A DNA stretch of 45,219 nt. Source: Cryobacterium sp. Lineage in GTDB: Bacteria; Actinomycetota; Actinomycetes; Actinomycetales; Microbacteriaceae. The stretch lies in NCBI RefSeq assembly GCF_025463825.1, contig NZ_JAODBG010000075.1:1-45219 (forward strand), given 5' to 3'. A program made the translations under genes and the position numbers. Positions 14,782 to 42,457 of the stretch are shown here, piece by piece. Positions within the stretch are counted from its first letter, which is position 1, and each line of letters starts with the position of its first letter. The notes below the pieces were generated by a model. The model had not been told where the DNA came from and did not search any database. It saw only the letters and a list, made by a program, of their open reading frames with translations.

Positions 14782-16188
14782 ATGACGACTCGGCAGCTCA
14801 CCCCGCCCGCGACCGAGCCAGACGACCGCCTCATCCTCAGCGCCATGGTGCGCACCCTGGGGGCGTTCCCGTCCGGCTGGCGGTACCCCGGCGCGCACAA
14901 CGACCCCGGAAAGGACGCCGACGCGCTCAAACGGGTGGCCCTAGCGGCGGAGAAGGCCGGTTTTGATTTCCTGTTCCTGGGTGACTGGCTCTCCACCGAC
15001 ACCGACCTGGAGTTCTCCGACCCGCACCTGCTGTCCCGTGCGGATTCGCTGAGCACCGCCTCCTACCTGGCCGCCGCGACCCGGCGGATCGGCATTGTGG
15101 GCACCGTGAACGTCTCCCATTCCGAGCCGTACGCCACCGCTCGGGCCGCGGCTTCCATCGACCGGCTCAGCTCCGGCCGGTTCGGGCTGAACCTCACGGT
15201 GGGCACGGATGCCCGCGGCGCGGCGAATTTCGGCAAGGCCGGGCACGTGCCCGATTTCGACCGCTTCGACGTGGCGGAGGAGTACGTGCAGGTGCTGCAC
15301 GGGCTGTGGGACGGTTGGGACGAGAAGGCCTTCGTACGGAACGCCGCGACCGGCACGCTGATCGACCGGGCCCTGGTGTCGACCCTCGACCACGTCGGCC
15401 GGTCCTACGCCGTGGCCGGGCCGCTCAACGTGCAGCGTCCGGTGCAGGGCCACGTGCCCCTGATGCACGCGGGCACGTCGCGCCGGGCGCAGGAGTTCTC
15501 CGCCGCATCGGCCGACATCTACCTGGTGGCGCCGGCCACTCTCGAGGAGGCGGTGACCCTGTACGCGCAGACGAAACAGCGGGTCACGGCGCTGGGCCGG
15601 CCGGCGGACGCACTGTCGATCGTGGCGCCGATCCTGCCGATCGTGGGGGAGCAGCGCGCCGACGCGTGGGAGGTGTACGACCGGCTGGTGGGACTCTTCC
15701 AGGTGGACGACGGCACCCCGACGGCGGCCGCGCTCGGCCTGCCGACCAACCGGAGCGCGCAAAGCCTGCGGCAGCTGGTGGGTCTGCCCCTGGCCGACCG
15801 GGGCATCGACGACGTGGTGACCGCGCCGACCGCGGCCCGGTTCAACGACACCGGCCGTCGGCTGCTCGCCGTGGTCGCCGAGCGGTCCGGGCGCACCGTC
15901 GGCGGCGACCGCCCGGTCACCTACCGGCACCTGTTGGTGGCGCACCTGGTGCGCTCACCCATCATCGTGGGATCGGCGGCGGACATCGCCGACCAGATGG
16001 AACGCTGGTACCGGGCCGGCGCCGTGGACGGCTTCGGGGTGCTCAGCGCGTTCCTGCACGAGCAGTTCGAAACGTTCACCCGACTCGTGGTGCCCGAACT
16101 CGTGCGCCGCGGCCTGGTGCGGGAGGCCTATTCGGCCAGCACCCTGCGTGGTCACCTCGGGTCGACGGTTCCGGGCCGCAGCCGATGA
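14782..16188 (+). CDS. LLM-class flavin monooxygenase (NtaA/SnaA/DszA family)
   Basis: A 468-residue bacterial-luciferase-fold enzyme of the long NtaA/DszA/SnaA branch. It starts with 'MVRTLGAFPSGWRYPGAHND' around residue 23, then 'GFDFLFLGDWLSTDTDLEFS', 'IGIVGTVNVSHSEPYATARA', 'LSSGRFGLNLTVGTDARGAA' and 'AEEYVQVLHGLWDGWDE'. Such enzymes use FMNH2 from a separate reductase and O2 to oxidise organosulfur or amine substrates, often breaking C-S bonds. It opens a four-gene operon in which every junction is an ATGA overlap (M20, ATP-grasp, GNAT). In Bacillus, LLM plus M20 plus GNAT salvage S-alkylcysteines through N-acetylated intermediates; the same use is inferred here. Confidence 0.9.
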   Translation: MTTRQLTPPATEPDDRLILSAMVRTLGAFPSGWRYPGAHNDPGKDADALKRVALAAEKAGFDFLFLGDWLSTDTDLEFSDPHLLSRADSLSTASYLAAATRRIGIVGTVNVSHSEPYATARAAASIDRLSSGRFGLNLTVGTDARGAANFGKAGHVPDFDRFDVAEEYVQVLHGLWDGWDEKAFVRNAATGTLIDRALVSTLDHVGRSYAVAGPLNVQRPVQGHVPLMHAGTSRRAQEFSAASADIYLVAPATLEEAVTLYAQTKQRVTALGRPADALSIVAPILPIVGEQRADAWEVYDRLVGLFQVDDGTPTAAALGLPTNRSAQSLRQLVGLPLADRGIDDVVTAPTAARFNDTGRRLLAVVAERSGRTVGGDRPVTYRHLLVAHLVRSPIIVGSAADIADQMERWYRAGAVDGFGVLSAFLHEQFETFTRLVVPELVRRGLVREAYSASTLRGHLGSTVPGRSR

Positions 16189-17492
16189 CCGCGCCGAACC
16201 GGTATTACCTCGACGCGGTGGCCGTGGAGACCGAACGGAAGGCCGCGCTCGCCGTGCCGATCCAGTCACCGCACCCGGGCGCCCCAGCCGGCATCGCCGC
16301 CGACGTGCGCGCCGCCCTGGCCCTGCTGCAGCCGGAGCTGCTGACCCTGTCGCACCGCATCTTCGACCACGCCGAGGAGGCGTTCCGGGAGACGAACAGC
16401 GTCGCCGACATCCGTGCCCTGCTGGCCGCGCACGGCATCGCGTCCCACGGCAACGCCTACGGCCTCGCCACGGCGTTCGAGGCGGAGATCGGCGACCCGG
16501 CCGGCCCCACCGTGGCGATCCTCGCCGAGTACGACGCCCTGCCCGGCATCGGCCACGGTTGCGGGCACAACATCATCGCCGCCGCCGCGGTCGGCGCGTT
16601 CCTGGCGCTGGCCGCCGTCGCCGACCGGCTGCCCGGCCGGGTGGTGCTGCTGGGCACCCCCGCCGAGGAGGGCGGCAACGGCAAGGAGCTGCTGGCCCGG
16701 GCGGGCGCGTTCGACCTGGTGGATGCGGCGATCATGGTGCATCCGTTCGGCTACGACGCCGCCGACCATCCGTTCATCGGCCGGCGGATCGTGCGGGTGC
16801 GCTACACCGGGGTGGCCGCGCACGCGTCGGCGAGCCCGTTCATGGGCCGGAACGCCCTGGATGCGGTGGCGCTGAACTACCAGGCGGTCGGGTTCCTGCG
16901 CCAGCATCTGCCGCCGGGCGACCGGATCCACGGGGTGGTGCTGGCCGGCGGTGACCGGCCCAACATCGTGCCCGCGTTCGCCGAACTGGAGTATTACCTG
17001 CGCTCGCCCGCGGTGGAGACGCTCAAGGACCTCAGTCGCCGGGTGGAGGACATCGCCCACGGCAGCGCCTTGTCGACCGGCACCACCGTGGAGGTGGACT
17101 GGGACCCGGCGCCGTACTCCCTGCCGATCCGGTTCAATCAGCCGCTGACCGCGCGCTGGGCCGTGCGGCAGGCGGAACTCGGCCGCACCGTGCTGACCCG
17201 GGCGGTGGTTCCCAGCGAACTGGCGGCCTCCACCGATTTCGGCAACGTCAGCGCCAGGGTGCCGTCGATCCACCCGGTGATCAAGGTGAGCCCGCCCGGG
17301 ATCTCCCTGCACACCACCGAGTTCGCCGACTACGCGAACGGGCCGGAGGGCGACCGGGCAGTGTTCGACGGCGCGGACGGGCTGGCGCTCACCGCCGCCG
17401 ATTTCCTGTTCGACGACGAGCTGCGCCAGGCGGTGTCGGCGGACTTCGCCGCATGCGGTGGGGTGCTGGACGTGGAAGGCTATTTCTCATGA
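16185..17492 (+). CDS. M20-family amidohydrolase/peptidase (PM20D2/AbgB-like)
   Basis: A 435-residue metallo-amidohydrolase. Metal-site motifs: 'LAEYDALPGIGHGCGHN' (about 113-129), 'GTPAEEGGNGKELL' (157-170, catalytic Glu) and 'MVHPFGYDAADHPF'. The lid domain carries 'YTGVAAHASASPF' with the bridging His, and the end has 'STDFGNVSARVPSIHPVI' and 'HTTEFADYA'. The short AEYDALPGIGHGCGHN signature is that of the amidohydrolase/dipeptidase branch rather than ArgE. It would remove an N-acyl group or split a dipeptide. ATG 16185 overlaps the LLM stop and its own stop overlaps the ATP-grasp start, so tight coupling is expected. Confidence 0.9.
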   Translation: MTAPNRYYLDAVAVETERKAALAVPIQSPHPGAPAGIAADVRAALALLQPELLTLSHRIFDHAEEAFRETNSVADIRALLAAHGIASHGNAYGLATAFEAEIGDPAGPTVAILAEYDALPGIGHGCGHNIIAAAAVGAFLALAAVADRLPGRVVLLGTPAEEGGNGKELLARAGAFDLVDAAIMVHPFGYDAADHPFIGRRIVRVRYTGVAAHASASPFMGRNALDAVALNYQAVGFLRQHLPPGDRIHGVVLAGGDRPNIVPAFAELEYYLRSPAVETLKDLSRRVEDIAHGSALSTGTTVEVDWDPAPYSLPIRFNQPLTARWAVRQAELGRTVLTRAVVPSELAASTDFGNVSARVPSIHPVIKVSPPGISLHTTEFADYANGPEGDRAVFDGADGLALTAADFLFDDELRQAVSADFAACGGVLDVEGYFS

Positions 17493-18496
17493 GTTCTCTG
17501 ATTGCCCCCGAGGCCACCCCCGTCGTGCACGTGCTGCACGAGAATCCCGACTGGTTCGGCCCGTTCCAGGCCGCGTTCGAGGCCGCGGGCGTGCCGTACC
17601 GCGAATGGCTGCTCGTGGACGGTGTGCTCGACCTCGACGAGGCGCCGCCGGCCGGCATTTTCTGGTCGCGGATCAGCGCCTCCGCGCACACCCGCGGGCA
17701 CGGACTGTCGAAGGACTACACCCGCAGCGTGCTCAACTGGCTGGACGCGTACGGCGCCCGCACCGTGAACGGCCGCCGCACCATCGAACTCGAGGTCAGC
17801 AAGGTGGACCAGCTCACCCGGCTGCGGGCGCAGGGGTTCGACGTGCCGCGCACCCGCGTGGTCGTCGGCACGCACCGGCTGGTCGAGGCGGCGCAGGGCT
17901 TCCCCACGCCGTTCATCACCAAGCACAACCAGGGCGGCAAGGGCCTGGGCGTGCAGAAGTTCGACAGCGCCGCAGAGCTGGCCGCTGCCATCGACGCCGG
18001 CCGGTACGAGGAGCCGGAGGACGGCATCTCGCTGCTGCAGGAGTTCGTGGTGGCGGCGAAGCCCGAGGTGACCCGGGTGGAGATCGTCGGCGACGAGTTC
18101 ATCTACGCGATCACCGCCGACACCGCCCGCGGCGGCTACCAGCTGTGCCCGGCGGATGCCTGCGCCATCGACCCGACCACCGGTGCGCTGCTGCTGCCGC
18201 CCGGCGCCACCATCCTGCCCGAGGCCGGACAGCAGATCTTCGCCCGCCGGGAGGGGTTCGACTCGCCGATCATCGACCGGTACCGGGCGTTCCTGCGCGC
18301 GGAAGGCATCGAGATCGCCGGCATCGAGTTCATCGAGACCGCCGACGGCCGGCTGGTGACCTACGACGTGAACACCAACACCAACTACAACGCGCAGATC
18401 GAGGCCGACGCCCCGAAGAGCGGCCCCGGGGCGATCGTCGCCTACCTGGCGGGGCTGCTCGCCGAGGTCTACCCCGACGTGCCCGCGGACGCATGA
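17489..18496 (+). CDS. ATP-grasp ligase (RimK-like fold)
   Basis: A 335-residue ATP-grasp protein. The N-terminal part, 'VVHVLHENPDWFGPFQAAFE', is a pre-ATP-grasp domain. 'ELEVSKVDQLTRLRAQGFDVPRT' leads into the ATP-binding region with 'FITKHNQGGKGLGVQKF' (Lys plus glycine-rich loop). 'EITRVEIVGDEFIYAIT'-like residues and 'IEIAGIEFIETADGRLVTYD' with 'VNTNTNYN' supply the Mg-binding Glu/Asn at the end. Such ligases join a carboxylate to an amine or thiol via acyl-phosphate. It lies between an M20 amidohydrolase and a GNAT, each with 4-bp overlap. The substrate is unknown; making or remodelling a small peptide or amide-protected cysteine derivative is a guess. Confidence 0.82.
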   Translation: MSSLIAPEATPVVHVLHENPDWFGPFQAAFEAAGVPYREWLLVDGVLDLDEAPPAGIFWSRISASAHTRGHGLSKDYTRSVLNWLDAYGARTVNGRRTIELEVSKVDQLTRLRAQGFDVPRTRVVVGTHRLVEAAQGFPTPFITKHNQGGKGLGVQKFDSAAELAAAIDAGRYEEPEDGISLLQEFVVAAKPEVTRVEIVGDEFIYAITADTARGGYQLCPADACAIDPTTGALLLPPGATILPEAGQQIFARREGFDSPIIDRYRAFLRAEGIEIAGIEFIETADGRLVTYDVNTNTNYNAQIEADAPKSGPGAIVAYLAGLLAEVYPDVPADA

Positions 18497-19116
18497 GCGG
18501 GCCGGGCCTGACGGGCGTGCGGGTGCGCCCAGCCGCCCCGCACGAGTTCGGGCGGGTGGCCGACCTCGTGGAGCTCGGCTTCCGGAACGGCCCGTACGGG
18601 CACCTCCCGGTGTCGGCGGCCCGCACCGCGCTGGTGCGCGATTCGGCCGGTCGGGCGGCGGCGGGCGCGTTGCTCGTCGCTGTTGATGGGCACAGTGCTG
18701 TCGATGGGCACAGTGCTGTCGATGGGCACAGCGCTGTTGATGCAGCCGATGAGACGGCCGTCGTGCCGCTCCTCGGCACCGCCAGCCTGCTACGCGCCGG
18801 CGCATCCGGCACCCGGTTGGCCCGGCAGGGTGAGGCCGAGCTCCGGCTGATCGCGGTCGACCCGGATGCCCGCGGCCGGGGGATCGGCGAAGCGCTGGTG
18901 CTGCACGCGCTGGCGGTGGCCGCCCAGTGGGGCGTCGACGCCGTGGTGCTCGACACCGGCTCGCTCAATCTGCCGGCGCAGCGGCTCTACGACCGGGTCG
19001 GCTTCACGCTCGTGCATGACCGGGTCCCTGGCGGCCTGGGCGGCCCGGGTTCACCCGACGCGATCCCGCCCGTGGTCTACCGATTCGCGCTGTCCACGCG
19101 GCGGGCCTGTCGGTAG
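18493..19116 (+). CDS. GNAT N-acetyltransferase with VDGHSA tandem repeats
   Basis: A 207-residue GNAT. The acetyl-CoA loop is 'RGRGIG' (127-132), preceded by 'AELRLIAVDPDA' (strand 4) and followed by 'VVLDTGSLNLPAQRLYDRVGF' (motif B). Residues 64-81 are three exact VDGHSA repeats encoded by an 18-bp tandem array, inserted between strands 2 and 3 where GNATs normally have a short loop. The ATG at 18493 overlaps the ATP-grasp stop. As last gene of the LLM-M20-ATP-grasp operon it is a candidate for the N-acetylation step of S-modified cysteine salvage (inference from the yxe/ytm operons). Confidence 0.85.
   Translation: MSGPGLTGVRVRPAAPHEFGRVADLVELGFRNGPYGHLPVSAARTALVRDSAGRAAAGALLVAVDGHSAVDGHSAVDGHSAVDAADETAVVPLLGTASLLRAGASGTRLARQGEAELRLIAVDPDARGRGIGEALVLHALAVAAQWGVDAVVLDTGSLNLPAQRLYDRVGFTLVHDRVPGGLGGPGSPDAIPPVVYRFALSTRRACR
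18682..18741 (+). repeat. 18-bp tandem repeat, 3.3 copies
   Basis: Unit GTYGATGGGCACAGYGCT at 18682-18699, 18700-18717 and 18718-18735, plus a partial fourth copy. Copies differ by one or two silent changes. The unit is a multiple of 3, so copy changes lengthen or shorten the GNAT protein without frameshift. Confidence 0.9.
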
Positions 19117-19123
19117 ACGGCAC

Positions 19124-19129
19124 TATTGT
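19124..19129 (+). promoter_or_regulatory. -10 box TATTGT before the small leader ORF
   Basis: TATTGT, then 6 nt, then an ATG at 19136. This is the leaderless geometry seen elsewhere in the window and suggests that the 14-codon ORF, not the larger gene at 19177, has the first start codon. Confidence 0.45.
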
Positions 19130-19135
19130 CGGACC

Positions 19136-19623: not shown

Positions 19624-19625
19624 AC

Positions 19626-19835: not shown

Positions 19836-19932
19836 CCGCAGGACAATCAGCCGCAGCGCAAGCATCGTTACCGCGTGTTGCGAGTGTGACGCCGCGGGAC
19901 GCATCATCCGTCAATTGCGCGTGGCCGGGCCG

Positions 19933-20799: not shown

Positions 20800-21936
20800 G
20801 TGAAGTTCCAGGTTCTCGACATCATCCCGTACCTCACCAACCCGGTCACCGGCCGGATCGTGTCACCCAGCGACCGGTTCGCGCAGACCATCCAGGTGGC
20901 CCGCCGGGCGGAGGAACTGGGCTTCGATGCCTACTCGGTGGGGGAGCGGCACGCTGGGCGCTTCCTGTCCTCGGCGCCGGCCGTGCTGCTCGGCGCGATC
21001 GCGGCAACCACCTCGCGCATCCGGCTGCAGTCCGGCGTGACCGTGTTGTCGCTGCTCGACCCGATCCGGGTGGCCGAGGACTACGCCACCATCGACCAGA
21101 TCTCCCGCGGCCGGCTCGACCTCACCATCGGCAAGGGCAACGAGGCCCAGCATTTCCCGCTGTTCGGGCTGCTCGTGGAGGACCAGTGGGAGCTCGTCGC
21201 CGAGAAGTACGAGCTGCTGCGCCGGCTGTGGCGGGAGACCGGCGTGACCTGGTCCGGTGAGTTCCGGCCCCCGGTCGTCGACATCACCACCCTGCCGCGC
21301 CCGTACGCCGGCGCACCACGGGTGTGGCACGGGTCGGCGACCACGCTGGCCTCGGCCGCGCTGGCCGCCAAGTGGGGCGACCCGCTGTTCACCGCCAACG
21401 CCATTCAGCCACGGCAGAACTACTCGGTGCTGATCGAGCACTACCGCGACGAATACGCACGAAACGGGCACGACCCGCGGTTCGCGTATCTGGGGTCAGG
21501 GTCGGGCAGCACCTTCCTCGCCGACACCACCCAGCAGGCCAAGGAGCAGTACGGGCCGGTCTATGAGGCCATCGTCGCGGCGACCCACGTGCCGGGCAAC
21601 AACACCCCGTTCCGTGACATCGACCACGCCGTGGCGGAGGGCCCGGCGCTGGTGGGCAGCCCGCAGCAGGTGATCGACAAGATCCTGTCGTACCACCAGC
21701 TGTTCCGGCACGACCTGCAGTCGATCAGCCTGCCGACGACGGTGCCGTTCGAACAGCAGCTGGAGATCCTCGAGCGGTTCGCCACCGAGGTGATTCCCAC
21801 GGTGCGCCGCGAGGCCCCCACCACCCTGTGGGGCGACGACGACCCGTACGGCGCCCGCCCGGCCTTCGCCGGCGCCCAGTCAGCGGATGCGGCCGCCGCC
21901 GTCACCGCGGCCTCGCGGCCTCGCGTGCTCGCCTGA
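20800..21936 (+). CDS. LLM-class flavin-dependent oxidoreductase (luciferase-like)
   Basis: A 378-residue enzyme of the shorter luciferase-like branch: 'VARRAEELGFDAYSVGERHA', 'RIRLQSGVTVLSLLDPIRVA', 'SRGRLDLTIGKGNEAQHFPL' and 'PRVWHGSATTLASAALAAKW'. It probably uses reduced flavin and O2 like its relatives. GTG start at 20800, with GGAG 10 nt upstream inside the DUF1684 gene. Paired with DUF1684. It ends in an Ala-rich tail. The next genes are on the opposite strand and converge on it. Confidence 0.88.
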   Translation: MKFQVLDIIPYLTNPVTGRIVSPSDRFAQTIQVARRAEELGFDAYSVGERHAGRFLSSAPAVLLGAIAATTSRIRLQSGVTVLSLLDPIRVAEDYATIDQISRGRLDLTIGKGNEAQHFPLFGLLVEDQWELVAEKYELLRRLWRETGVTWSGEFRPPVVDITTLPRPYAGAPRVWHGSATTLASAALAAKWGDPLFTANAIQPRQNYSVLIEHYRDEYARNGHDPRFAYLGSGSGSTFLADTTQQAKEQYGPVYEAIVAATHVPGNNTPFRDIDHAVAEGPALVGSPQQVIDKILSYHQLFRHDLQSISLPTTVPFEQQLEILERFATEVIPTVRREAPTTLWGDDDPYGARPAFAGAQSADAAAAVTAASRPRVLA

Positions 21937-31033: not shown

Positions 31034-32311
31034 ATGACCGCACGATTCCACCTCGGTATCGCCCTCGACGGCGCGGGCTGGCATCCGTCGGCCTGGCGTG
31101 AACCGGATGCCCGCCCCACCGAACTCTTCGATTTGGCCTACTGGGTCGACCTGGTGCGGATCGCCGAGGCGGCCGGCATCGACCTGGTCACCTTCGAAGA
31201 CGCCTTCGGGCTGCAGTCCGCCGGCTTCGGCGGCGTCGACGACCGCCACGATGAGGTGCGCGGCCGGCTCGACGCGCTGCTGCTGGCCGCCGCGATCGCG
31301 CCGCACACCAGCCGCATCGGGCTGGTCCCCACCGTCACCACCACGCACACCGAACCGTTCCACGTGGGCACCGCCACCGCCACCCTCGACTACGTCAGCG
31401 AGGGCTGGGGCGGCTGGCGCGTGCAGGTCTCCGGGCGGGCGCACGAGGCCGCGCACGTCGGCCGCCGCACCCTCCCTCCGCTGGACCCCGGCGCTGTCGT
31501 AGCGGGCACCGACCCGGCGCAGACCGCGCTGATCGAGCAGCTCTTCGGCGAGGCCGCCGACACCATCGAGGTGGCGCGCCGGCTCTGGGACAGTTGGGAA
31601 GACGACGCCATCATCCGCGACGAGCCCACCGGCCGCTTCATCGACCGCGACAAGCTGCACTACATCGACTTCGCCGGCGATACCTTCACGGTGAAGGGCC
31701 CGTCGATCACGCCGCGCCCGCCCCAGGGCCAGCCCGTGGTCTTTGCGCTCGCCCACCAGAAGGTGCCGTACGAGCTGGCCACCGCAGCCGCCGACATCGT
31801 GGGGATCACCCCCAAGGACGACGCGCACCTCACCCAGATTCTCGGCGAGCTGGCGGACGCGGCGGCCACCGTCACGCGCACGGCCCCTGAGCCGTTGCGG
31901 GTGTGGAGCGAGGCCGTGATCCTGATCGAAGACAGCCCCCAGGAGGCCCGCGCGGCCCTCGCCCGGCTGGACGCCGCGCACGGCGCGACGTACACCTCGG
32001 ACACCGTCATCCTCGCCGACACCGCCGCGAACGTGGCGGCGCAGCTGCTCGCCTGGCACGATGCCGGCCTCGACGGGGTGCGGTTGCGCCCCGCCCGGCT
32101 GCCCGCCGACCTGGTGCGGATCACCGCCGAGGTGGTTCCCGCGCTCGCCGCCGCCGGGGTGCTCGACCGGCCCGCCGGCGCGGGCACCCTCCGCGAGCGG
32201 CTCGGGCTGGGCGTGCCGGAGAACCGCTACGCCGCATCCGCCGACCCCGCCCCCGGCGCCCTCCGCAACGACCCTGCTGACCACAACCTGATCGGAAGCG
32301 CCCGCTCATGA
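31034..32311 (+). CDS. LLM-class flavin-dependent oxidoreductase
   Basis: A 425-residue luciferase-fold enzyme. It starts 'FHLGIALDGAGWHPSAWREP', then 'DLVTFEDAFGLQSAGFGGVD', 'RIGLVPTVTTTHTEPFHVGT', 'LDYVSEGWGGWRVQVSGRAH' and 'TIEVARRLWDSWEDDAIIRD'. Family members need FMNH2 and O2. ATG 31034 has AAAGGA 8 nt upstream; an in-frame reading further upstream lies in the promoter. The stop overlaps the next LLM gene (ATGA), so two different LLMs are made in tandem, possibly for two substrates or as partner subunits like LuxAB. Confidence 0.9.
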   Translation: MTARFHLGIALDGAGWHPSAWREPDARPTELFDLAYWVDLVRIAEAAGIDLVTFEDAFGLQSAGFGGVDDRHDEVRGRLDALLLAAAIAPHTSRIGLVPTVTTTHTEPFHVGTATATLDYVSEGWGGWRVQVSGRAHEAAHVGRRTLPPLDPGAVVAGTDPAQTALIEQLFGEAADTIEVARRLWDSWEDDAIIRDEPTGRFIDRDKLHYIDFAGDTFTVKGPSITPRPPQGQPVVFALAHQKVPYELATAAADIVGITPKDDAHLTQILGELADAAATVTRTAPEPLRVWSEAVILIEDSPQEARAALARLDAAHGATYTSDTVILADTAANVAAQLLAWHDAGLDGVRLRPARLPADLVRITAEVVPALAAAGVLDRPAGAGTLRERLGLGVPENRYAASADPAPGALRNDPADHNLIGSARS

Positions 32312-33684
32312 CCCTCACCTCCGACGCACCCGCGCGCACCCGCGCAGAGCGACCGCTCAAGCAGGTGCACCTCGCCGCGCACTTCCCCGGCGTGAACAAC
32401 ACCACGGTCTGGCGCGACAACAGCACTGCGGCCAGCCAGATCGCCTTCTCCTCCTTCAAGCACTTCGCCCAGAACGCGGAGAAGGGCAAGTTCGACTTCC
32501 TCTTCCTCGCCGAAGGGCTGCGGCTGCGCGAGCACAAGGGACTCATCCACGACCTCGACGTCGTGGGCCGGCCCAACACCCTCGCGGTGCTCGCCGGAAT
32601 CGCCGCCGTCACATCGCACATCGGCCTGGTCGGCACCCTGAGCAGCACCTTCAACGAGCCCTACGAGCTCGCCCGACAGCTCTCCTCCCTCGACCACCTC
32701 TCGGGCGGCCGGGCCGGCTGGAACATCGTGACCACGTTCGACGCGTTCCACGGCGAGAACTTCCGCCGCGGGAAGTTCCTCGACGGCGCCGACCGGTACG
32801 CCAGGGCCGAAGAGTTCGTGGCCGTGGCCCGCCAACTCTGGGACGCCTGGTCGCCGGACGCCATCGCCGCCGACAAGGCCGGCGGCGACTTCCTCGCCGA
32901 GGACGCGATCGGGCTGGTCGACCATCATGGCCCGCAGTTCGACGTCACCGGGTTCCCGACCCTGCCGCAGAGCCCCCAGGGCCGCCCCGTGATCGTGCAG
33001 GCCGGCGACTCCGCCGACGGGCGCGGCTTCGCCTCCCGCACCGCCGAGGTCATCTTTTCCCGGCACGCCAAGTTCGAGGACGGCCAGAAGTTCTACACCG
33101 ACGTCAAGGGCCGGCTGGCGGCCGTCGGGCGCCACCGCGACTCGCTCAAGATCCTGCCGGCGGCCACCTTCATCCTCGGCGACACCGAGCAGGAGGCGCG
33201 GGAGCGCTCCCGCGAGACCGCGCTGCTGCAGGTGAGCCCGCAGACAGCGATCGCGTTCCTCGAGCAGGTCTGGGGCACCGACCTCGGCGGCTACGACCCG
33301 GACGGACCGCTGCCGGACATCGACCCGGTCAGCACCGACCAGGGCGTCACCCGCGGCCGGGTGCGACACGACTCCGACCCGGCCGCCATCGCCCGCGGCT
33401 GGCGCGCGCTGGCGGAAGCCGAGGGGCTGAGCATCCGGGACCTGGTCATCCGCTTCGCCGCCACCCACACCTTCGTGGGCACCCCGGTGCACGTGGCCGA
33501 GACGATCAACCGGCACGTGCAGGAGGACGCCTCCGACGGCTTCGTCATCGTCGGCAGCTCCAACCCCACCGGGCTCGACGAGTTCGTCGACCGCGTGATA
33601 CCCGAACTGCAGGAGCGCGGCGTCTACCGCACCGAGTACGAGGAGGGCGCGACATTGCGCCGCACCCTCGGCCTGCCGGTCTGA
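32308..33684 (+). CDS. LLM-class flavin monooxygenase (NtaA/SnaA/DszA family)
   Basis: A 458-residue member of the long branch: 'KQVHLAAHFPGVNNTTVWRD', 'GKFDFLFLAEGLRLREHKGL', 'GLVGTLSSTFNEPYELARQL', 'SGGRAGWNIVTTFDAFHGEN', 'AVARQLWDAWSPDAIAADKA' and 'GRPVIVQAGDSADGRGFAS'. This set is shared with nitrilotriacetate, dibenzothiophene-sulfone and S-alkylcysteine monooxygenases. The ATG overlaps the stop of the preceding LLM. A rhodanese gene follows after 36 nt. The context supports a C-S or C-N bond-cleaving role on an imported compound. Confidence 0.92.
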   Translation: MTLTSDAPARTRAERPLKQVHLAAHFPGVNNTTVWRDNSTAASQIAFSSFKHFAQNAEKGKFDFLFLAEGLRLREHKGLIHDLDVVGRPNTLAVLAGIAAVTSHIGLVGTLSSTFNEPYELARQLSSLDHLSGGRAGWNIVTTFDAFHGENFRRGKFLDGADRYARAEEFVAVARQLWDAWSPDAIAADKAGGDFLAEDAIGLVDHHGPQFDVTGFPTLPQSPQGRPVIVQAGDSADGRGFASRTAEVIFSRHAKFEDGQKFYTDVKGRLAAVGRHRDSLKILPAATFILGDTEQEARERSRETALLQVSPQTAIAFLEQVWGTDLGGYDPDGPLPDIDPVSTDQGVTRGRVRHDSDPAAIARGWRALAEAEGLSIRDLVIRFAATHTFVGTPVHVAETINRHVQEDASDGFVIVGSSNPTGLDEFVDRVIPELQERGVYRTEYEEGATLRRTLGLPV

Positions 33685-36855: not shown

Positions 36856-36859
36856 GGCC

Positions 36860-37480
36860 TCAGTCGCCCTCTGCCGGTGGCACGAAGCCGGGATTCTTCG
36901 CCCGGTGCTCGGCCAGGGCCACCTCGTGGGCCCGGGTGATGCCGGGCACGTCGAGCGGGGTGGCGTCCAGGCTCTTCGCGAAGGCGTGGATGATGACCTC
37001 CTCGGGGGAGAGGGCCGGGTCGAACAGCGGGGTGTACCCGGTGCGCAGGTACAGGTTCTTCGCCTCGGGCTGGCGGGGCCCGGTGGTGAGGAAGACCCGG
37101 TCGTAGCCGCGGCGGCGGGACTCGTGCTCGAGTTCGGCGACTACCAGCCGGGCCAGGCCCTGCCGGCGGTGCGTCGCTGCGGTCCAGATGCGCTTGAGTT
37201 CCGAGGTGTGCTCGTCGAAGCGCTTGAAGGCGCCACCGGCGATGGGTGTGCCGCCGCGCAGCAGCAGCACGAACGCGCCGTGTGGGGCAGCGAACGCCTC
37301 CACCGGATACCGCCGGATCTCGACGGAGGCACTCTCACCGAAGAACGAGCCGTAGCGGGAGTCGTACTCCTGGGCCAGTTCGGTCAGCAGCGGTTCGGCC
37401 AGCGGGTCATCGGCGGACACGTAGACGAAGGTGTCCTCGTCCGTGGCGTTGCCGGTCCGGGGTGGGTCAAGCAGCGTCAC
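36860..37480 (-). CDS. GNAT-family N-acetyltransferase
   Basis: A 206-residue acetyltransferase. 'AELRRY'-like start is absent; instead 'FVYVSADDPLAEPLLTELAQ', then 'AFVLLLRGGTPIAGGAFKRF', 'SELKRIWTAATHRRQGLARL' (acetyl-CoA loop RRQGLA at 105-110) and 'YDRVFLTTGPRQPEAKNLYL' with 'RTGYTPLFD' (motif B). GTG 37480 lies 14 nt inside the LLM gene, so the two overlap and are coupled. In the Bacillus yxe operon a GNAT next to LLM and amino-acid ABC genes acetylates S-substituted cysteine; the same role is inferred. Start codon choice is moderately sure. Confidence 0.85.
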   Translation of the reverse strand: MTLLDPPRTGNATDEDTFVYVSADDPLAEPLLTELAQEYDSRYGSFFGESASVEIRRYPVEAFAAPHGAFVLLLRGGTPIAGGAFKRFDEHTSELKRIWTAATHRRQGLARLVVAELEHESRRRGYDRVFLTTGPRQPEAKNLYLRTGYTPLFDPALSPEEVIIHAFAKSLDATPLDVPGITRAHEVALAEHRAKNPGFVPPAEGD

Positions 37481-38618
37481 GAGAAGACCCCTTCTCGGAA
37501 GCGGAAGCGGAAGCGGAAGCGGATGCGGCGGCGGCGTCGCGCTTGGCAACTTCCTCGCGCACCAGCGGGATGACATAGCGGCCGAAGTCGACGGTGTCGT
37601 CGACGTAGTCGTAACCGCGGGCGGAGATGATGTCCACGCCCAGGTCGATGTAGTCCAACAACGCCGCAGCGACCTGCTCCGGTGTGCCGACGAGGGCGTT
37701 CGAGTTGCCCCGGCCGCCGGCAGCTTTGCCGGCCTTGGTCCACAGGGCCTTGTCGAACCGGTCGCCCTGCTCGGCGATCCGCAGCAACCGCTGCGAGCCG
37801 GCGTTCTCCGGTGAGTGCAGCGCCGCCACCTGCTCGGGGGTGGCGGTCGTGGCGACCCGTTGCTCGATCTTGCCGAGGATGTCCTCCGCCTTTCGCCAGG
37901 CGAGGGCCTCGGTGGCGGCGATGATCGGGCGGAACGCCACCTGGATGCGCGGACGCTCGGTGCGGCCGGCCGCGAGGGCGGCATCCGTGATGGTCTGGAT
38001 CTGCTCGGCCGTGTCGGCGAGCGGTTCACCCCAGAGCGCGAAGATGTCGGCTTCGACCGCGCCGATCGAATAGGCGGCGGGGGACGAGCCGCCGAAGGAG
38101 ATCTGCGGGCGCGGGCTCTGCGCCGGGAAAATGTCGCTGACGAAATCCTCGAACCGGTAGTGGCTGCCGACGAAGCTGAACGCCTCGGTGCTGGTCCAGG
38201 CCTGCTTGAGGATGCGGATGTACTCACCGGTGCGCTCGTACCGGTCGTCCTTGCTGAGGTGGTCGCCCTCGGCGGCCTGGTCGGCGGTGGAGCCGCCGGT
38301 GATGACGTGCAGGTTGACCCGGCCGGCACTGATCTGGTCGAGGGTGGCGACCACCTTGGCCGCGTAGGTGGGGTAGGACACGTTGGGCCGGTGCGCCAGC
38401 AGGATCTTCAGGCTGTCGAGCTTGGCGGCCACGAGCGCGGCGATCGACGCGGGGTCGGGGGAGCCGGAGTGATAGGCGAAGAGCACCCGGTCCCAGCCGT
38501 GGTCTTCGTGCGCCCGGGCCAGGCGCAGCGTGTAGTCCAGGTCGAAACTGGGGCCGGTGCGCGGCTGGGTCTCGCTGCCGTTGTTCAGTGCGGCGATGCC
38601 GAGGAATTCGATGGGCAT
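37467..38618 (-). CDS. SsuD-like LLM alkanesulfonate-type monooxygenase
   Basis: A 383-residue luciferase-fold enzyme. 'EFLGIAALNNGSETQPRTGP' opens; 'WDRVLFAYHSGSPDPASIAA', 'LKILLAHRPNVSYPTYAAKV', 'DQISAGRVNLHVITGGSTAD', 'DHLSKDDRYERTGEYIRILK' and 'PQISFGGSSPAAYSIGAVEA' follow. The HVITGGSTADQ...DDRYERT block is the SsuD/sulfonate-monooxygenase signature. Such enzymes release sulfite from sulfonates with FMNH2 and O2. The C-terminus ends in a Ser-Ala repeat encoded by a hexanucleotide array. ATG 38618 has AAAGGA upstream. First gene of the GNAT/ABC operon and divergent from the FAD protein. Confidence 0.9.
   Translation of the reverse strand: MPIEFLGIAALNNGSETQPRTGPSFDLDYTLRLARAHEDHGWDRVLFAYHSGSPDPASIAALVAAKLDSLKILLAHRPNVSYPTYAAKVVATLDQISAGRVNLHVITGGSTADQAAEGDHLSKDDRYERTGEYIRILKQAWTSTEAFSFVGSHYRFEDFVSDIFPAQSPRPQISFGGSSPAAYSIGAVEADIFALWGEPLADTAEQIQTITDAALAAGRTERPRIQVAFRPIIAATEALAWRKAEDILGKIEQRVATTATPEQVAALHSPENAGSQRLLRIAEQGDRFDKALWTKAGKAAGGRGNSNALVGTPEQVAAALLDYIDLGVDIISARGYDYVDDTVDFGRYVIPLVREEVAKRDAAAASASASASASEKGSSRDAA
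37497..37526 (-). repeat. Hexanucleotide tandem repeat at the end of the LLM gene
   Basis: GGAAGC repeated four times plus a GGATGC variant (plus-strand reading), then GGC triplets. It encodes the Ser-Ala tail of the LLM, about 17 nt before the GNAT start. Copy changes keep the LLM frame. Confidence 0.85.
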
Positions 38619-38777: not shown

Positions 38778-40880
38778 ATGAGCAGTGCAGATACCACCCC
38801 GGACACCGACAGCTCGCCCCTCTCGGTCGCGGTGATCGGCGCCGGTCCCCGCGGGGCCGGCGTGCTCGAACGGCTGGCCGCCAACCTCGGCACCGAATGG
38901 ACCACCGACCGGCCCCTCGTGCTGCATTTCATCGACCCGTTCCCCGCCGGGCCCGGCCGAATCTGGCGGTTCGACCAGTCCCCACTGCTCAAGCTGAATT
39001 CGATGGCGGCCGACGTCACCATGTTCACCGACGAGTCCTCCGTGATCGACGGCCCGGTGCGGCCCGGCCCGTCGCTGATCGACTGGGTCGACCGGGTACG
39101 CACCGGCAGCATCGAGCTGCCTCCCGTGGATGCGGCGCTCGCCGCGGAGATCAGCGTCCTCACCGGTGCCGACTTTCCCACCCGCCGGCTGCAGAGCCTC
39201 TACCTCGACTGGTTCTTCCGAGCCGCGGCCGACGAGCTGTCGGATGCCGTGGGCGTCGAGGTGCACCCCGCCCGCGCGACGCGGGTCGACGACCTGCCCG
39301 GCGGCGACCAGCTCGTCACGCTCGACGACGACAGCACGATCGTCGCCAACGTGGTGCTGTTCTCGCTCGGCCACAACGGCTCCCAGCCCGAGCCGGCGCA
39401 CGCCGAGCTGGCCGGTTTCGCCGCCCGGCACGGGCGGGTCTACCTGCCGCCGGCGTTCACCGCGGATGCCGACCTGAGCCCGATCACCCCCGGCCAGAAC
39501 CTCATCGTGCGCGGCTTCGGCCTCGCCGCGGTCGACCTCACCGTGCTCCTCACCGAGGGCCGCGGCGGCCGGTTCAGCCACGACGACTCCGGCCGGCTGG
39601 TCTACTCGCCGAGCGGCGACGAACCGCGCCTGTTCCTCGGCTCCCGCCGCGGGGTGCCGTACCGGTCCAAAATCAGCTCCACCCTGGTGGGCGAGCGCCC
39701 GGCGCCGCGGTTCTTCACACCCGAGGTGGCCGCCCGGCTGGAGTCCGGCAGCGAGAGCCTGGACTTCACCGCCGACATCTGGCCGCTGATCGCCCAGGAG
39801 AGCCTGTGGGGCTACTACCGCGAACTCTTCACCGGGCACCCGGAACGGGTGAGCCTGCCCTGGGCGGAGTTCGCCGACCGGTTCGCGGCGATCGACCCGC
39901 GCGCGCTGCCGATCGCGGCCGGCACCCCCGTGGCCGCAGCGGAGCGCCGCTCCAGCCATCCGCTCGTCGAATTCGGATCGGATGCGCCCGCCATCGAGCG
40001 CGACATCACTCGTTTTCGCGACCTGGTCGTCGCGGGGGTGCCCGACCCGCTCGACCGGATCTTCCTGCCCGAGTTCGACCGGCCGCTACACGGCCTGCGG
40101 TTCGGCTCGGCCGAGGATTTGCAGGCGGCGCTGCGGGAGTACATCCAAGGCGACCTCGCCCTGCGCACCCGGCCGGAGCACTCCGCGACGCTGGGCCTGT
40201 TCGTGGCCCTGCTGACCAGCCTGTTCACGCTGTCGGACATCATCGACTCGCCCAAGTGGACGGCCGAATCCCGGGTGCGGGACATCCACGGCTGGTGGCT
40301 GGGCTACTTCAGCTTCATCGCCAGCGGACCGCCCGGGCACCGGCTGGACGAACTCGTGGCGCTGTCCGAGGCCGGGATCGTGGAGTTCCTCGGCGGTGAC
40401 CTGGAGGTTCAGGCCGACGAGGCCACCGGGCTGTTCCGCGCCGGCAGCGCCAACGTCGACCGGGTGGTCACCGCCGCGGCGCTGATCGACGCGCGGCTGC
40501 CCGACACGAGCGTCTCCCGCAGCGACAATGACCTGCTGCGCGCCCTAATCGCCGAGGGCGGCGCAGTGGAGGAGCTGGTGGCCGACGGCGACTACGTCGG
40601 CAGCACCGGCCGGCTGCTGGTGCGCCAGCTGGACACCCGGGTGGTGGACGCGAGCGGCGCCCTGCACGAGCGCCGCTTCGCGATCGGGCCATACACGAAC
40701 TCACCGTTCGTCGGCGCGTTCTCCCGGCCGCGCACCAACGCGATCTCCTTCCGCGAGAACGACAAGGTCGCCCGCGCGCTGCTCCGCCACCTCGCGACCC
40801 TGCACACCCCCGCGCCCGCCACCGCGGAGTGCGAGACGGCCCACGAACGACACACAACGTTACACAGCGTCGAACCGTGA
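38778..40880 (+). CDS. Large FAD/NAD(P)-binding protein
   Basis: A 700-residue protein with an N-terminal Rossmann motif 'VAVIGAGPRGAGVLERLAAN' (about 17-36), then 'FIDPFPAGPGRIWRFDQSPL', 'LKLNSMAADVTMF', 'VVLFSLGHNGSQP' and 'NLIVRGFGLAAVDLTVLLTE'. This is the NAD_binding_9-type (FAD-NAD(P)-binding) family, often 550-700 residues, with poorly known chemistry; relatives resemble N-hydroxylating or S-oxidising flavoenzymes. A C-terminal region 'RRFAIGPYTNSPFVGAFSRP' is also characteristic. No signal peptide. No ribosome-binding site is seen. Divergent from the SsuD-like operon and followed by the tRNA-like gene. A role in oxygenating an organosulfur or amine substrate is inferred from context. 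Confidence 0.85.
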   Translation: MSSADTTPDTDSSPLSVAVIGAGPRGAGVLERLAANLGTEWTTDRPLVLHFIDPFPAGPGRIWRFDQSPLLKLNSMAADVTMFTDESSVIDGPVRPGPSLIDWVDRVRTGSIELPPVDAALAAEISVLTGADFPTRRLQSLYLDWFFRAAADELSDAVGVEVHPARATRVDDLPGGDQLVTLDDDSTIVANVVLFSLGHNGSQPEPAHAELAGFAARHGRVYLPPAFTADADLSPITPGQNLIVRGFGLAAVDLTVLLTEGRGGRFSHDDSGRLVYSPSGDEPRLFLGSRRGVPYRSKISSTLVGERPAPRFFTPEVAARLESGSESLDFTADIWPLIAQESLWGYYRELFTGHPERVSLPWAEFADRFAAIDPRALPIAAGTPVAAAERRSSHPLVEFGSDAPAIERDITRFRDLVVAGVPDPLDRIFLPEFDRPLHGLRFGSAEDLQAALREYIQGDLALRTRPEHSATLGLFVALLTSLFTLSDIIDSPKWTAESRVRDIHGWWLGYFSFIASGPPGHRLDELVALSEAGIVEFLGGDLEVQADEATGLFRAGSANVDRVVTAAALIDARLPDTSVSRSDNDLLRALIAEGGAVEELVADGDYVGSTGRLLVRQLDTRVVDASGALHERRFAIGPYTNSPFVGAFSRPRTNAISFRENDKVARALLRHLATLHTPAPATAECETAHERHTTLHSVEP

Positions 40881-40925: not shown

Positions 40926-40999
40926 CGCGGCGTACCCAAGTGGACCAAGGGACCGGTTTCATATTCCGGTATACGCAGGTTCGAATCCTGCCGTCGCGT
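40926..40999 (+). tRNA. tRNA-like cloverleaf with CAU anticodon (Met or Ile2)
   Basis: Seven-base acceptor stem CGCGGCG (40926-40932) pairs with CGTCGCG (40992-40998, one G-U), then U8-A9. D-arm CCC...GGG has A14, G18-G19 and A21. The anticodon arm CCGGT-TTCATAT-TCCGG has one T-T mismatch next to the loop, with anticodon CAT. The T-arm GCAGG-TTCGAAT-CCTGC is perfect. The discriminator base is T and no CCA is encoded. Total 74 nt, class I with a 5-nt variable loop. A C1-G72 pair and the D-stem argue against an initiator tRNA, leaving elongator Met, Ile2 or a decayed/extra tRNA. The T31-T39 mismatch lowers confidence. Confidence 0.65.
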
Positions 41000-41047
41000 C
41001 GAGCGCCCCACGGGCTCGTGCGACCCGCGCGGATGCCGGAGTGCATC

Positions 41048-41059: not shown

Positions 41060-42457
41060 ATGAGTACCCCGAGCGCCGTGAGCACCCCGAAGCGGCTGAT
41101 CCTGAACCTGTTCGAGATGAACACGGTGAGCCACATCACGCACGGCCTCTGGCGCCTGCCCGGCAACAACCGGCACCGCTTCAACGACATCGAGTACTGG
41201 ACCGAGCTGGCCACGATGCTCGAGGCCGGCGGCTTCGACGCGGTGTTCCTGGCCGATGTTGTCGGTGCCTACGATGTCTTCCGGGACGGTTTGGAGACCG
41301 CGCTGCGCGAGGGGCTCCAGATCCCGAGCAGCGACCCGATGCTGGTCATCCCGGCCATGGCGGCGGTCACCACGCACCTCGGCTTCGGCGTCACGTTCTC
41401 CACCAGCTATGAACCGCCGTTCGCGTTCGCCCGCCGGATGAGCACCCTCGACCACCTCACCAAGGGCCGGGTCGCCTGGAACATCGTCACCTCCTACCTG
41501 CCCAATGCCGCCCGCAATTTCGGTCTGGCCGACGAGATCCCGCACGATGAGCGCTACGCGATCGCCGACGAATACCTCGACGTGCTCTACAAACTGTGGG
41601 AGGGCTCCTGGGACGACGACGCGGTTCTCCGCGACACCGAGCACAACGTCTATACCGATCCCACCAAGGTGCGCTACATCAACCACGTGGGGGAGCACTT
41701 CTCGGTGGCCGGGCCGCACCTGACCGAGCCGTCCCGGCAGCGCACCCCGGTGCTGTACCAGGCCACGGCGTCCAGGGCCGGCATCGACTTCGCCGGCCGG
41801 CACGCCGAGGTCGTGTTCACCGGCGGACCCAGCTACGAAAAGGTGCTCGCCGGCATCCAGGCGATGCGGGACGCCGTCGCGGCGAACGGCCGGTCGGCCA
41901 CCGACATCAAGTTCATCGTGCAGGCCGGCATCGTCGTGGGCCGCACCGAGGAGGAAGCCGCCCAGAAGCTCCGCGCCTACCGGGAGCTCGCCAGCGTGGA
42001 GGGGCGTCTCGCGCACCAGAGCGTGCCCTTCGACCCGATGGCGCACGAGCCGGGCACGACGGTCCGGGATGCGTTGATCGCCGAAGGCAAGCAGGATGCG
42101 CCCGGCGCGGCCTTCCTGCCGTTGGAGAAGACCGTGGCCGAGTACCTGGCCGGCCTCAAGGAGTCCTGGGACGAACTGTTCTTCGTCTGCGGCACCCCGG
42201 CCACGGTGGCGGACGCCATCGAGGCCTGGCTCGACGACGTCGGCATCGACGGCATCAACCTGCGCCAGTACCACTCCTTCGGAACCGCCCAGGACTTCAT
42301 CGAACTCGTCGTGCCCGAACTCCGCGCCCGCGGACGCCTGCGCGAGGCCTACGTGGCTGGCGAGACCCTACGGGAGCGCCTCTTCGGCGGTTCCCCGCGC
42401 CTGAGGCATCCGCACCCCGCCACCCGCTACCGAGGCGGCGCCAACCTCCAGGGCTAG
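41060..42457 (+). CDS. LLM-class flavin monooxygenase (NtaA/SnaA/DszA family)
   Basis: A 465-residue long-branch member: 'RLILNLFEMNTVSHITHGLW', 'GFDAVFLADVVGAYDVFRDG', 'GFGVTFSTSYEPPFAFARRM', 'TKGRVAWNIVTSYLPNAARN', 'DEYLDVLYKLWEGSWDDDAV' and 'TPVLYQATASRAGIDFAGRH'. The block 'KGRVAWNIVTSYLPNAARNF' is strongly conserved in the NtaA/DszA group. The transcript is probably leaderless. It stands alone between the tRNA-like gene and an alcohol dehydrogenase 26 nt downstream that has its own box. Substrate unknown; context again suggests an organosulfur or N-containing compound. Confidence 0.92.
   Translation: MSTPSAVSTPKRLILNLFEMNTVSHITHGLWRLPGNNRHRFNDIEYWTELATMLEAGGFDAVFLADVVGAYDVFRDGLETALREGLQIPSSDPMLVIPAMAAVTTHLGFGVTFSTSYEPPFAFARRMSTLDHLTKGRVAWNIVTSYLPNAARNFGLADEIPHDERYAIADEYLDVLYKLWEGSWDDDAVLRDTEHNVYTDPTKVRYINHVGEHFSVAGPHLTEPSRQRTPVLYQATASRAGIDFAGRHAEVVFTGGPSYEKVLAGIQAMRDAVAANGRSATDIKFIVQAGIVVGRTEEEAAQKLRAYRELASVEGRLAHQSVPFDPMAHEPGTTVRDALIAEGKQDAPGAAFLPLEKTVAEYLAGLKESWDELFFVCGTPATVADAIEAWLDDVGIDGINLRQYHSFGTAQDFIELVVPELRARGRLREAYVAGETLRERLFGGSPRLRHPHPATRYRGGANLQG

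What the first reader, a model, noticed from the sequence alone, without database searches (positions are those of the whole stretch)
14782..42457. A 28-kb sulfur-scavenging island built around six different LLM flavin monooxygenases
Seen: six LLM genes (14782, 20800, 31034, 32308, 37467, 41060), two GNATs, one M20 amidohydrolase, an SBP-5 ABC importer, an SBP-3 ABC importer, a rhodanese and a large FAD/NAD(P) protein. They are flanked by an OAH sulfhydrylase, a MalY-type C-S lyase and a MetQ lipoprotein. Known: in Bacillus, yxe and ytm operons combine LLM, GNAT, amino-acid ABC and M20 genes to salvage S-substituted cysteines through N-acetyl intermediates; SsuD-type LLMs desulfonate. Inference: this island imports and desulfurises several classes of organosulfur compound, possibly including mercapturates made from mycothiol conjugates. 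The addition of an ATP-grasp ligase, DUF1684 and the FAD protein has no counterpart in the described operons that I know of.
Basis: partly seen in the sequence, partly recalled or inferred. Interest (0 to 1): 0.78.

Follow-up and report, generated by a model that had tools for sequence, protein, structure and literature searches.

The report
Modular organosulfur-scavenging island in Cryobacterium
This bacterium carries a 30-kb block of genes that probably takes up sulfur-containing organic molecules and cuts the sulfur out of them, using six flavin enzymes plus a kind of oxygenase better known from antibiotic synthesis.

Summary
In detail: six diverged LLM genes (best long pair 29.7% identical) and the listed partners are present. 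Real limits are about 12.1-42.45 kb: OAH sulfhydrylase and MalY are inside, MetQ is a distant fragment, and two inner stretches (19.1-19.85, 21.95-23.9 kb) are variable inserts. Two Cryobacterium genomes keep the order; a third lacks the block between the same flanking genes.

Relatives of the FAD protein (38778-40880) have an LLM within 10 kb in 69 of 80 loci (19 of 23 genera); 0 of 17 control loci do. Two module forms largely exclude each other: FAD protein + GNAT + SsuD-like LLM, or FAD protein + two NtaA-type LLMs + DUF1684. The window holds both.

New: the FAD protein is a class B monooxygenase with the aspartate N-hydroxylase (FzmM) fold but another substrate chamber; DUF1684 has an invariant Cx7C pair; some Streptomyces versions carry cysteine-type leader ORFs, the window does not.

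Best reading: import, N-acetylation, oxygenation, C-S cleavage, thiol reduction, sulfide capture. Substrates and reaction order are inferred. M20 and ATP-grasp look accessory. New variant of a known kind.

The parts
12093..13415 (-). OAHS: O-acetylhomoserine sulfhydrylase-type PLP enzyme
   Evidence: PF01053 1.8e-121; TIGR01326 473.6 bits, just under its cut-off 495.1; in the shared block of G002 and G004; beside MalY and LLM1 in L145-L147
13412..14662 (-). MalY/PatB-type C-S lyase (PLP)
   Evidence: TIGR04350 289.9 bits, under its cut-off 340; PF00155
14782..16188 (+). LLM1, NtaA/DmoA family; nearest solved protein YtnJ
   Evidence: TIGR03860 333.5 bits over cut-off 279.7; PDB 1yw1/6ask 212 bits
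16185..17492 (+). M20 amidohydrolase, nearest solved protein Xaa-Arg dipeptidase; frame given, start codon lies inside
   Evidence: PF01546; TIGR01891 over cut-off; PDB
17453..18496 (+). ATP-grasp ligase, distantly RimK-like; accessory
   Evidence: PF08443 2.4e-4; TIGR00768 64.7 bits, under cut-off 143.4; weak PDB matches
18493..19116 (+). GNAT1 acetyltransferase
   Evidence: PF00583
19945..20796 (+). DUF1684 with invariant Cx7C; proposed thiol relay
   Evidence: PF07920 1.1e-44; C247 and C255 invariant in 18 of 18; model matches Halobacterium Q9HRE7 structures
20800..21936 (+). LLM2, nearest NCBIfam model CE1758 family
   Evidence: TIGR04036 257.6 bits, under cut-off 479.1; PF00296
23805..25467 (-). 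MFS transporter in two overlapping ORFs in different frames
   Evidence: PF07690; MFS next to M20 and ATP-grasp in L150
25507..30900 (-). Opp/Dpp-type ABC importer: SBP-5, fused ATPases, two permeases
   Evidence: PF00496, PF00005, PF00528; SBP nearest TIGR04028, 370.5 bits, under cut-off 468.5
31034..32311 (+). LLM3, NtaA-like
   Evidence: PF00296; TIGR03860 215.5 bits, under cut-off; beside LLM4 on the same strand in 34 cases among 80 loci
32308..33684 (+). LLM4, NtaA/DmoA family; nearest solved protein YtnJ
   Evidence: TIGR03860 422.1 bits over cut-off; PDB 1yw1 280 bits
33721..34107 (+). rhodanese
   Evidence: PF00581; near LLM1 in L150, L155, L160
34224..36661 (-). SBP-3 polar amino-acid ABC importer (binding protein, ATPase, permease)
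   Evidence: PF00497, PF00005, PF00528; nearest NCBIfam models cystine importers, under cut-off; near FADNAD in 63-65 of 80 loci
36860..37474 (-). GNAT2 acetyltransferase
   Evidence: PF00583; near FADNAD in 56 of 80 loci
37467..38618 (-). LLM5, SsuD-like
   Evidence: TIGR03565 199.9 bits, under cut-off 518.2; PDB MsuD 167 bits; near FADNAD in 40 of 80 loci
38778..40880 (+). FADNAD: NADPH/FAD class B-type monooxygenase with the fold of L-aspartate N-hydroxylase FzmM
   Evidence: PF13454; PDB 8cp2 1.4e-85; model pLDDT 89.3, TM 0.78/0.90 to 8cp2
40926..41000 (+). tRNA-Met inside the island, close to the 3' end of FADNAD
   Evidence: also close to FADNAD in G002, G004, G033/L067, L066 and L068
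41060..42457 (+). LLM6, NtaA/DmoA family; nearest solved protein LadA
   Evidence: TIGR03860 471 bits over cut-off; PDB 3b9n 476 bits, DmoA 395 bits

Best explanation
The 12.1-42.45 kb block is a sporadically kept organosulfur-scavenging island made of two otherwise alternative actinobacterial modules plus an accessory unit. Shown here: gene content, conservation and linkage. Inferred: the mechanism. The SBP-3 importer brings in cysteine-type S-conjugates or other sulfur amino acids, the Opp importer larger ones. GNAT2 (or GNAT1) N-acetylates them. FADNAD, a single-component NADPH/FAD monooxygenase, oxygenates the substrate, most likely at sulfur, the job CmoO does in the Bacillus S-alkylcysteine route. 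The FMNH2-dependent LLM1, LLM3 and LLM4 then cut the C-S bond with a flavin reductase encoded elsewhere, while LLM5 (SsuD-like) serves a parallel branch. DUF1684 reduces the sulfenic acid or disulfide product through its Cx7C pair. MalY releases sulfide and OAHS captures it as homocysteine. M20, ATP-grasp and MFS are probably a separate conjugate- or dipeptide-handling unit.
For: Linkage: any LLM in 69 of 80 FADNAD loci, 19 of 23 genera; GNAT2 56, importer genes 63-65, DUF1684 22; in 17 control loci LLM, SBP-3, permease, GNAT2 and DUF1684 0 and ABC ATPase 3. LLM1 loci: 10 of 20 read hold other island genes, among them OAHS-MalY facing LLM1-DUF1684-LLM3-LLM4 (L145-L147) and nearly the full set in L149. 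LLM1 and LLM4 are nearest to YtnJ among solved proteins. An FMN reductase stands between LLM1-like and LLM2-like genes next to FADNAD in L049. Cysteine-type leader ORFs in 13 of 80 loci, one of them 91 bp before LLM3, six before a 368-369 aa ORF that is an NMT1-type binding protein in the one case tested. Cx7C invariant in 18 of 18 DUF1684 and proposed as a thiol relay in PMC9426492 (passages). Acetylation, sulfoxidation, C-S cleavage, reduction, deacetylation is the described Bacillus order (PMC10863075, part 1 of 3 and passages).
Against: No regulatory signal was found in the window itself: no cysteine leader, no McbR-like box (recalled consensus) with 0 or 1 mismatch. 11 of 80 FADNAD loci have no LLM match. 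M20, ATP-grasp, LLM6, MalY and OAHS are rarely or never near FADNAD (0, 0, 1, 2, 2 of 80), and ten of 20 LLM1 loci show weak or no links. LLM5 fails the SsuD cut-off. The only solved relative of FADNAD is an N-hydroxylase, not an S-oxygenase. No flavin reductase is in the window. LLM clusters of unrelated context exist in the same genome. Substrates were not tested.
Confidence: 0.6

Rival explanations
1. N-oxygenation rather than S-oxygenation: FADNAD N-hydroxylates a sulfur-bearing amino acid (for example cysteine sulfinate or cysteate, analogues of aspartate); the activated product loses its sulfur group, or GNAT2 turns it into a hydroxamate.
For: Closest solved relative and fold are L-aspartate N-hydroxylase; residues equivalent to R13 and N62 are invariant in 12 aligned sequences; PMC10404684 reports that sulfate binds in the aspartate site (passages). 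A GNAT beside an N-hydroxylase is also the pattern of hydroxamate siderophore genes (recalled).
Against: Entry-chamber residues R409, R412, N413 and R416 are not kept in the pairwise alignment (alignment uncertain there). None of the island proteins scanned is a nitrosuccinate-lyase type enzyme. LLM partners do not fit hydroxamate synthesis.
Confidence: 0.15
2. The island mainly disposes of electrophile conjugates (detoxification) and sulfur recovery is secondary.
For: S-alkylcysteines arise from electrophile detoxification (PMC10863075); an MFS transporter sits with M20 and ATP-grasp in L150.
Against: OAHS and MalY in the same loci, importers rather than exporters as the commonest partners, cysteine-type leaders in Streptomyces.
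Confidence: 0.12
3. Chance crowding of paralogous LLM genes in an LLM-rich genome (37 matches), with no common pathway.
For: Other LLM clusters in the genome; some island genes are loosely linked elsewhere; M20 and ATP-grasp occur without LLMs in the genus.
Against: Order kept in G002 and G004; the same partners recur in other families and orders with no LLM in 17 control loci.
Confidence: 0.07

Closest known systems
Bacillus subtilis S-alkylcysteine salvage with CmoO and CmoJ (PMC10863075; that CmoJ is YtnJ of the ytm operon is recalled)
   Same: Amino-acid ABC importer, GNAT, LLMs whose nearest solved protein is YtnJ; a reduction step that DUF1684 could serve.
   Different: Adds FADNAD, DUF1684, LLM5, OAHS and MalY; no YxeP-like M20 was found here; no flavin reductase in the window.
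Bacillus yxe (scm) locus for S-(2-succino)cysteine (PMC9706529, part 1 of 6 and passages)
   Same: LLM, GNAT, ABC importer and an M20 in one place.
   Different: M20 is nearest to Xaa-Arg dipeptidase, YxeP only 36 bits; no identity to YxeK itself was measured.
SsuD/MsuD alkanesulfonate monooxygenases; Corynebacterium ssu/seu multi-LLM clusters (seu recalled)
   Same: LLM5 is nearest to MsuD and SsuD; several LLMs in one actinobacterial sulfur cluster has a precedent (recalled).
   Different: LLM5 is far below the SsuD cut-off (199.9 against 518.2 bits); importers are amino-acid and peptide type, not SsuABC, in the window.
L-aspartate N-hydroxylase FzmM/CreE (PDB 8cp2, PMC10404684, part 1 of 6 and passages)
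   Same: Fold, domain order and cofactor-site residues R25 and N74.
   Different: Entry-chamber residues not kept; no nitrosuccinate-lyase type protein among those scanned; linked to LLMs and importers instead.

Membership tests
yxe (scm) locus | YxeP-like N-acetylcysteine deacetylase | tested here: not met
   M20: Xaa-Arg dipeptidase 218 bits, yxeP 36 bits
yxe (scm) locus | YxeK: close homologue (over 50% identity) of the B. subtilis enzyme | not tested
   YxeK sequence was not compared; the nearest solved proteins found were YtnJ, NtaA-like, LadA
yxe (scm) locus | GNAT and ABC importer clustered with an LLM | tested here: met
CmoO/CmoJ pathway | CmoJ-type (YtnJ-like) LLM | tested here: inconclusive
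   LLM1 and LLM4 have YtnJ as best solved match (212 and 280 bits), but NtaA-like 3sdo and DszA-type enzymes score close behind
CmoO/CmoJ pathway | S-alkylcysteine sulfoxidation and C-S cleavage activity | not testable with these tools
   needs enzyme assays
SsuD alkanesulfonate monooxygenase | TIGR03565 equivalog cut-off | tested here: not met
   LLM5 199.9 bits against 518.2
L-aspartate N-hydroxylase (FzmM/CreE) | fold and cofactor-site residues | tested here: met
   TM 0.78/0.90; R25 and N74 invariant in 12 of 12; in the 26-row alignment N74 invariant, R25 90% or more
L-aspartate N-hydroxylase (FzmM/CreE) | aspartate entry chamber (R276, R409, R412, N413, R416, R577) | tested here: not met
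   R409, R412, N413, R416 not kept; R276 equivalent kept only in 3 of 12; R577 equivalent kept in 8 of 12; local alignment uncertain
DUF1684 thiol relay proposal (HVO_1043) | conserved Cx7C | tested here: met
   C247 and C255 invariant in 18 of 18; proposal in PMC9426492 (passages)
TIGR04028 LLM-associated binding protein (KPN_01854) | NCBIfam cut-off | tested here: not met
   370.5 bits against 468.5
Cysteine-regulated operon of Actinobacteria | cysteine-type leader ORF before the operon | tested here: inconclusive
   15 leader-like ORFs in 13 of 80 related loci, none in the window, 0 in reversed sequence

The most novel reading that the evidence does not exclude
A widespread actinobacterial route takes sulfur from amino-acid sulfur compounds with a repurposed aspartate-N-hydroxylase-type monooxygenase: it activates the substrate by NADPH-driven oxygenation (at S, or even at N) and hands it to one of two largely interchangeable LLM branches, a SsuD-like one, or an NtaA-type pair with a DUF1684 thiol relay. 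The Bacillus pathways have no such combination.
Probability: 0.35. Interest if true: 0.75.

Novelty: new variant of a known kind. Interest (0 to 1): 0.55.

Why it matters
If right, many Actinobacteria share a sulfur-salvage module whose central enzyme is annotated only as an FAD/NAD(P)-binding protein. It would give a function to that branch of the FzmM-type enzymes, so far known from biosynthesis, and to DUF1684, and it names genes that can be deleted and assayed to study sulfur cycling in soil, cold and plant habitats.

Tried and rejected
McbR box (consensus recalled): no site with 0 or 1 mismatch in the window; sites with 2 or 3 mismatches are scattered (list cut at 30). Rfam: only the tRNA passes. 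Cysteine-type leader ORFs: in Streptomyces and Umezawaea loci, not in the window. Flavin reductases: none in the window; matches on seven other contigs (C73, C24, C117, C143, C82, C86, C76). Plasmid search with FADNAD: 60 records, all under 60% identity, the 15 listed being Streptomyces at 34-35%; not followed. M20 as mercapturate deacetylase: weakened. LLM6 as part of the core: weakened (1 of 80). Neighbour genes of unclear meaning (helicase, protease, Band_7 and others) were scanned and set aside. All ten paper searches were listings; none showed a description of this module, and the library lacks most subscription papers. PMC7661421 and PMC2580772: passages only; the first reports LLM genes and an N-acetyltransferase expressed with fluorinated sulfonates as sulfur source and has no hit for FAD, NtaA or DUF1684. 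PMC8557817 (passages): NtaA-like proteins and a cystine-type importer listed next to sarcosine oxidase in Rhodococcus under biodesulfurisation; homology to this island not tested. PMC13352529 (passages) gave no lead. PMC4833913 (passages) has no mention of cysteine.

A4 used the window and 17 of the 24 DUF1684 rows (7 partial or split rows left out). Of 21 other genomes with a close LLM1, 20 were read (G088 was not).
Full report
1. The observation. The window is G000 contig C130:1-45219 of a 3.53-Mb draft genome. Its relatives point to Cryobacterium: the G002 contig has the length of a C. arcticum SK-1 contig, the G033 contig that of C. glucosi MDB1-5. All six LLM ORFs pass PF00296. They are diverged: best long pair 29.7% over 427 aa, one 71-aa segment at 36.6%. 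LLM1, LLM4 and LLM6 pass the NtaA/DmoA cut-off; LLM3 does not; LLM2 and LLM5 stay under the cut-offs of their nearest models, CE1758 and SsuD. The other listed genes are confirmed. MetQ is a fragment at 13-384, and another part of a MetQ lies at the start of contig C99. LLM clusters also exist on C100, C99, C73 and C56 of the same genome, one with a ribose-type and one with an NMT1-type transporter beside it, so density alone is weak evidence.

2. Where the island begins and ends. G002 and G004 share the block in order; apart from the ComEA-like and MFS genes the matches are 71-96% identical at protein level. LLM6 is found in G004 but not in the G002 stretch read. In G032 the genes that flank the block here, ClpC and ADH2, lie about 150 bp apart, followed by an ATP-grasp 89% identical to the one in the island. 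So the block from about 12.1 to 42.45 kb, OAHS and MalY included, is present or absent largely as a unit, and the ATP-grasp in G032 may be a remnant. Two inner pieces do not belong: 19.1-19.85 kb has no match in G002 or G004, and 21.95-23.9 kb has none in G004. Without the first, LLM1-M20-ATP-grasp-GNAT1-DUF1684-LLM2 stand in one row on one strand. Of 36 same-genus genomes, 3 have a close FADNAD (70% or more identity; G002, G004, G033), 2 a remote one (G003, G014) and 31 none.

3. Linkage beyond the genus. By tblastn at 1e-10, any LLM is present in 69, ABC ATPase in 65, permease in 63, SBP-3 in 63, GNAT2 in 56, LLM5 in 40, LLM4 in 36, LLM3 in 35, DUF1684 in 22, LLM2 in 19, Opp genes in 10, LLM1 in 5, GNAT1 in 5, MalY in 2, OAHS in 2, LLM6 in 1, rhodanese in 1, M20 and ATP-grasp in 0; 11 have no LLM. 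By genus: any LLM 19 of 23, GNAT2 17, permease 12. As a control I took the 17 loci around ATP-grasp homologues (L028-L044): LLM, SBP-3, permease, GNAT2 and DUF1684 0 of 17, ABC ATPase 3, GNAT1 1, M20 9. The control loci are fewer, and eight of them are shorter than 19 kb. Many of the 80 loci are Streptomyces and not independent.

4. Two module types. LLM5 and LLM3/LLM4 avoid each other within the loci (9 with both, 31 with LLM5 only, 29 with LLM3/4 only, 11 with neither; p 1.4e-5). LLM3 and LLM4 go together (33 with both). DUF1684 goes with LLM3/4 (19 of 22) and rarely with LLM5 (2 of 22). Relatedness and loci cut at 10 kb affect these values. In Arthrobacter (L122, L134, L140) the compact form is LLM4-LLM3-DUF1684-LLM2-SBP3-ABC-permease facing FADNAD-GNAT2. 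In Microbacteriaceae with LLM5, FADNAD and LLM5 lie 162-218 bp apart; in most Streptomyces and Kitasatospora the distance is about 1.5-1.8 kb. The window unites both types.

5. The LLM1 side. Of 199 family genomes (own included) 22 have a close LLM1; 20 of the 21 others were read. Ten hold other island genes. L149: FADNAD, LLM5, GNAT2, importer, LLM1, LLM3, LLM4, OAHS, MalY. L155 and L160: LLM1, rhodanese, importer, FADNAD, in L160 also GNAT2 and LLM5. L151: LLM1, DUF1684, LLM2, SBP-5. L159 and L161: Opp genes and another LLM. The other ten show weak or no links (L148 has a GNAT2 match at 56%, L154 importer matches at 43-52%). M20 and ATP-grasp also occur with an AbgT transporter between them in the genus (L028, L030, L038; PF03806 confirmed for L028), without LLMs, so they look accessory.

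6. FADNAD. Its only solved relative by sequence is 8cp2 (1.4e-85), the L-aspartate N-hydroxylase of PMC10404684 (part 1 of 6 and passages). The model (pLDDT 89.3) matches it at TM 0.78/0.90. Residues equivalent to R13 and N62 are invariant in 12 aligned homologues, R577 in the 8 nearest; R409, R412, N413 and R416 are not kept, R276 only in the 3 nearest. In a 26-row alignment N74, K298 and R650 are invariant and R25 is at 90% or more. I read this as a working NADPH/FAD monooxygenase with another substrate. In L053 the same ORF runs on into a PF03807 NADP-oxidoreductase domain. In L049 an FMN reductase stands between LLM1-like and LLM2-like genes beside FADNAD.

7. DUF1684. The model (pLDDT 85.9) matches Halobacterium Q9HRE7, also solved with mercury. 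C247 and C255 are invariant in 18 of 18. PMC9426492 (passages) proposes a thiol-relay role for a haloarchaeal member with this Cx7C. This would suit the reduction step that PMC10863075 (part 1 of 3 and passages) places after C-S cleavage; the assignment is inference.

8. Sulfur evidence beyond gene names. Leader-like ORFs ending in the pattern (R/K)(H/Y)x(D/E)(L/F)...C: 15 in 13 of 80 loci (12 Streptomyces, 1 Umezawaea), none in the window, 0 in the reversed sequences of the 112 stretches scanned. In L091 one ends 91 bp before the LLM3 match; in six loci (L087, L093, L103, L105, L109, L116) one ends 134-203 bp before a 368-369 aa ORF, which in the one tested (L087) is an NMT1-type binding protein. 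A Streptomyces plasmid has an annotated putative leader peptide between GNAT and the LLM pair, with the amino-acid importer in front. An Agrobacterium plasmid has a GNAT, three LLMs and an Opp-type importer together. Cysteine-codon leaders before actinobacterial cys operons are described in PMC1262725 (passages).

9. Verdict. A role in organosulfur scavenging: about 0.75 likely. The stated order of steps: about 0.3. The combined statement is put at 0.6. It works like the Bacillus acetylate-oxidise-cleave routes; membership in the named families is not shown: the M20 is not YxeP-like, LLM5 fails the SsuD cut-off, FADNAD lacks the aspartate chamber. New variant of a known kind; interest 0.55.

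Noticed in passing
window 13-384 and G000 contig C99:9-179: A MetQ gene seems split between the starts of contigs C130 and C99 (profile 104-227 and 3-56), so C99, with four more LLM matches, may abut the window's left end.
   Followed up: partly
window 19120-19840: About 750 bp with small ORFs of low third-position GC between GNAT1 and DUF1684, without a match in G002 or G004: a recent insert that may separate the operon.
   Followed up: partly
window 23805-25467: The MFS gene lies in two overlapping ORFs in different frames, either a frameshift in the gene or an assembly error; left as found.
   Followed up: no
window 40926-41000; L045, L046, L049, L065-L068: A tRNA-Met gene stands close to the 3' end of FADNAD in the window and in five other Cryobacterium genomes; a possible insertion point for the island.
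   Followed up: partly
L053:8892-11591: FADNAD homologue whose ORF continues into a PF03807 NADP-oxidoreductase (F420-reductase-like) domain.
   Followed up: partly
G000 C100:4392-10552 (L168) and C56:18672-23290 (L171): Other LLM arrays in the same genome, beside a ribose-type and an NMT1-type ABC transporter.
   Followed up: partly
L028:9483-13464, L030, L038: Several Cryobacterium genomes have an M20-AbgT-ATP-grasp row of unknown role, without LLMs.
   Followed up: partly
L093, L103, L105, L109, L116 near 12.1 kb: Conserved leader-like ORF ending LTSRRHID.GRTSSAICR or close to it between FADNAD and a 368-369 aa ORF in Streptomyces.
   Followed up: partly
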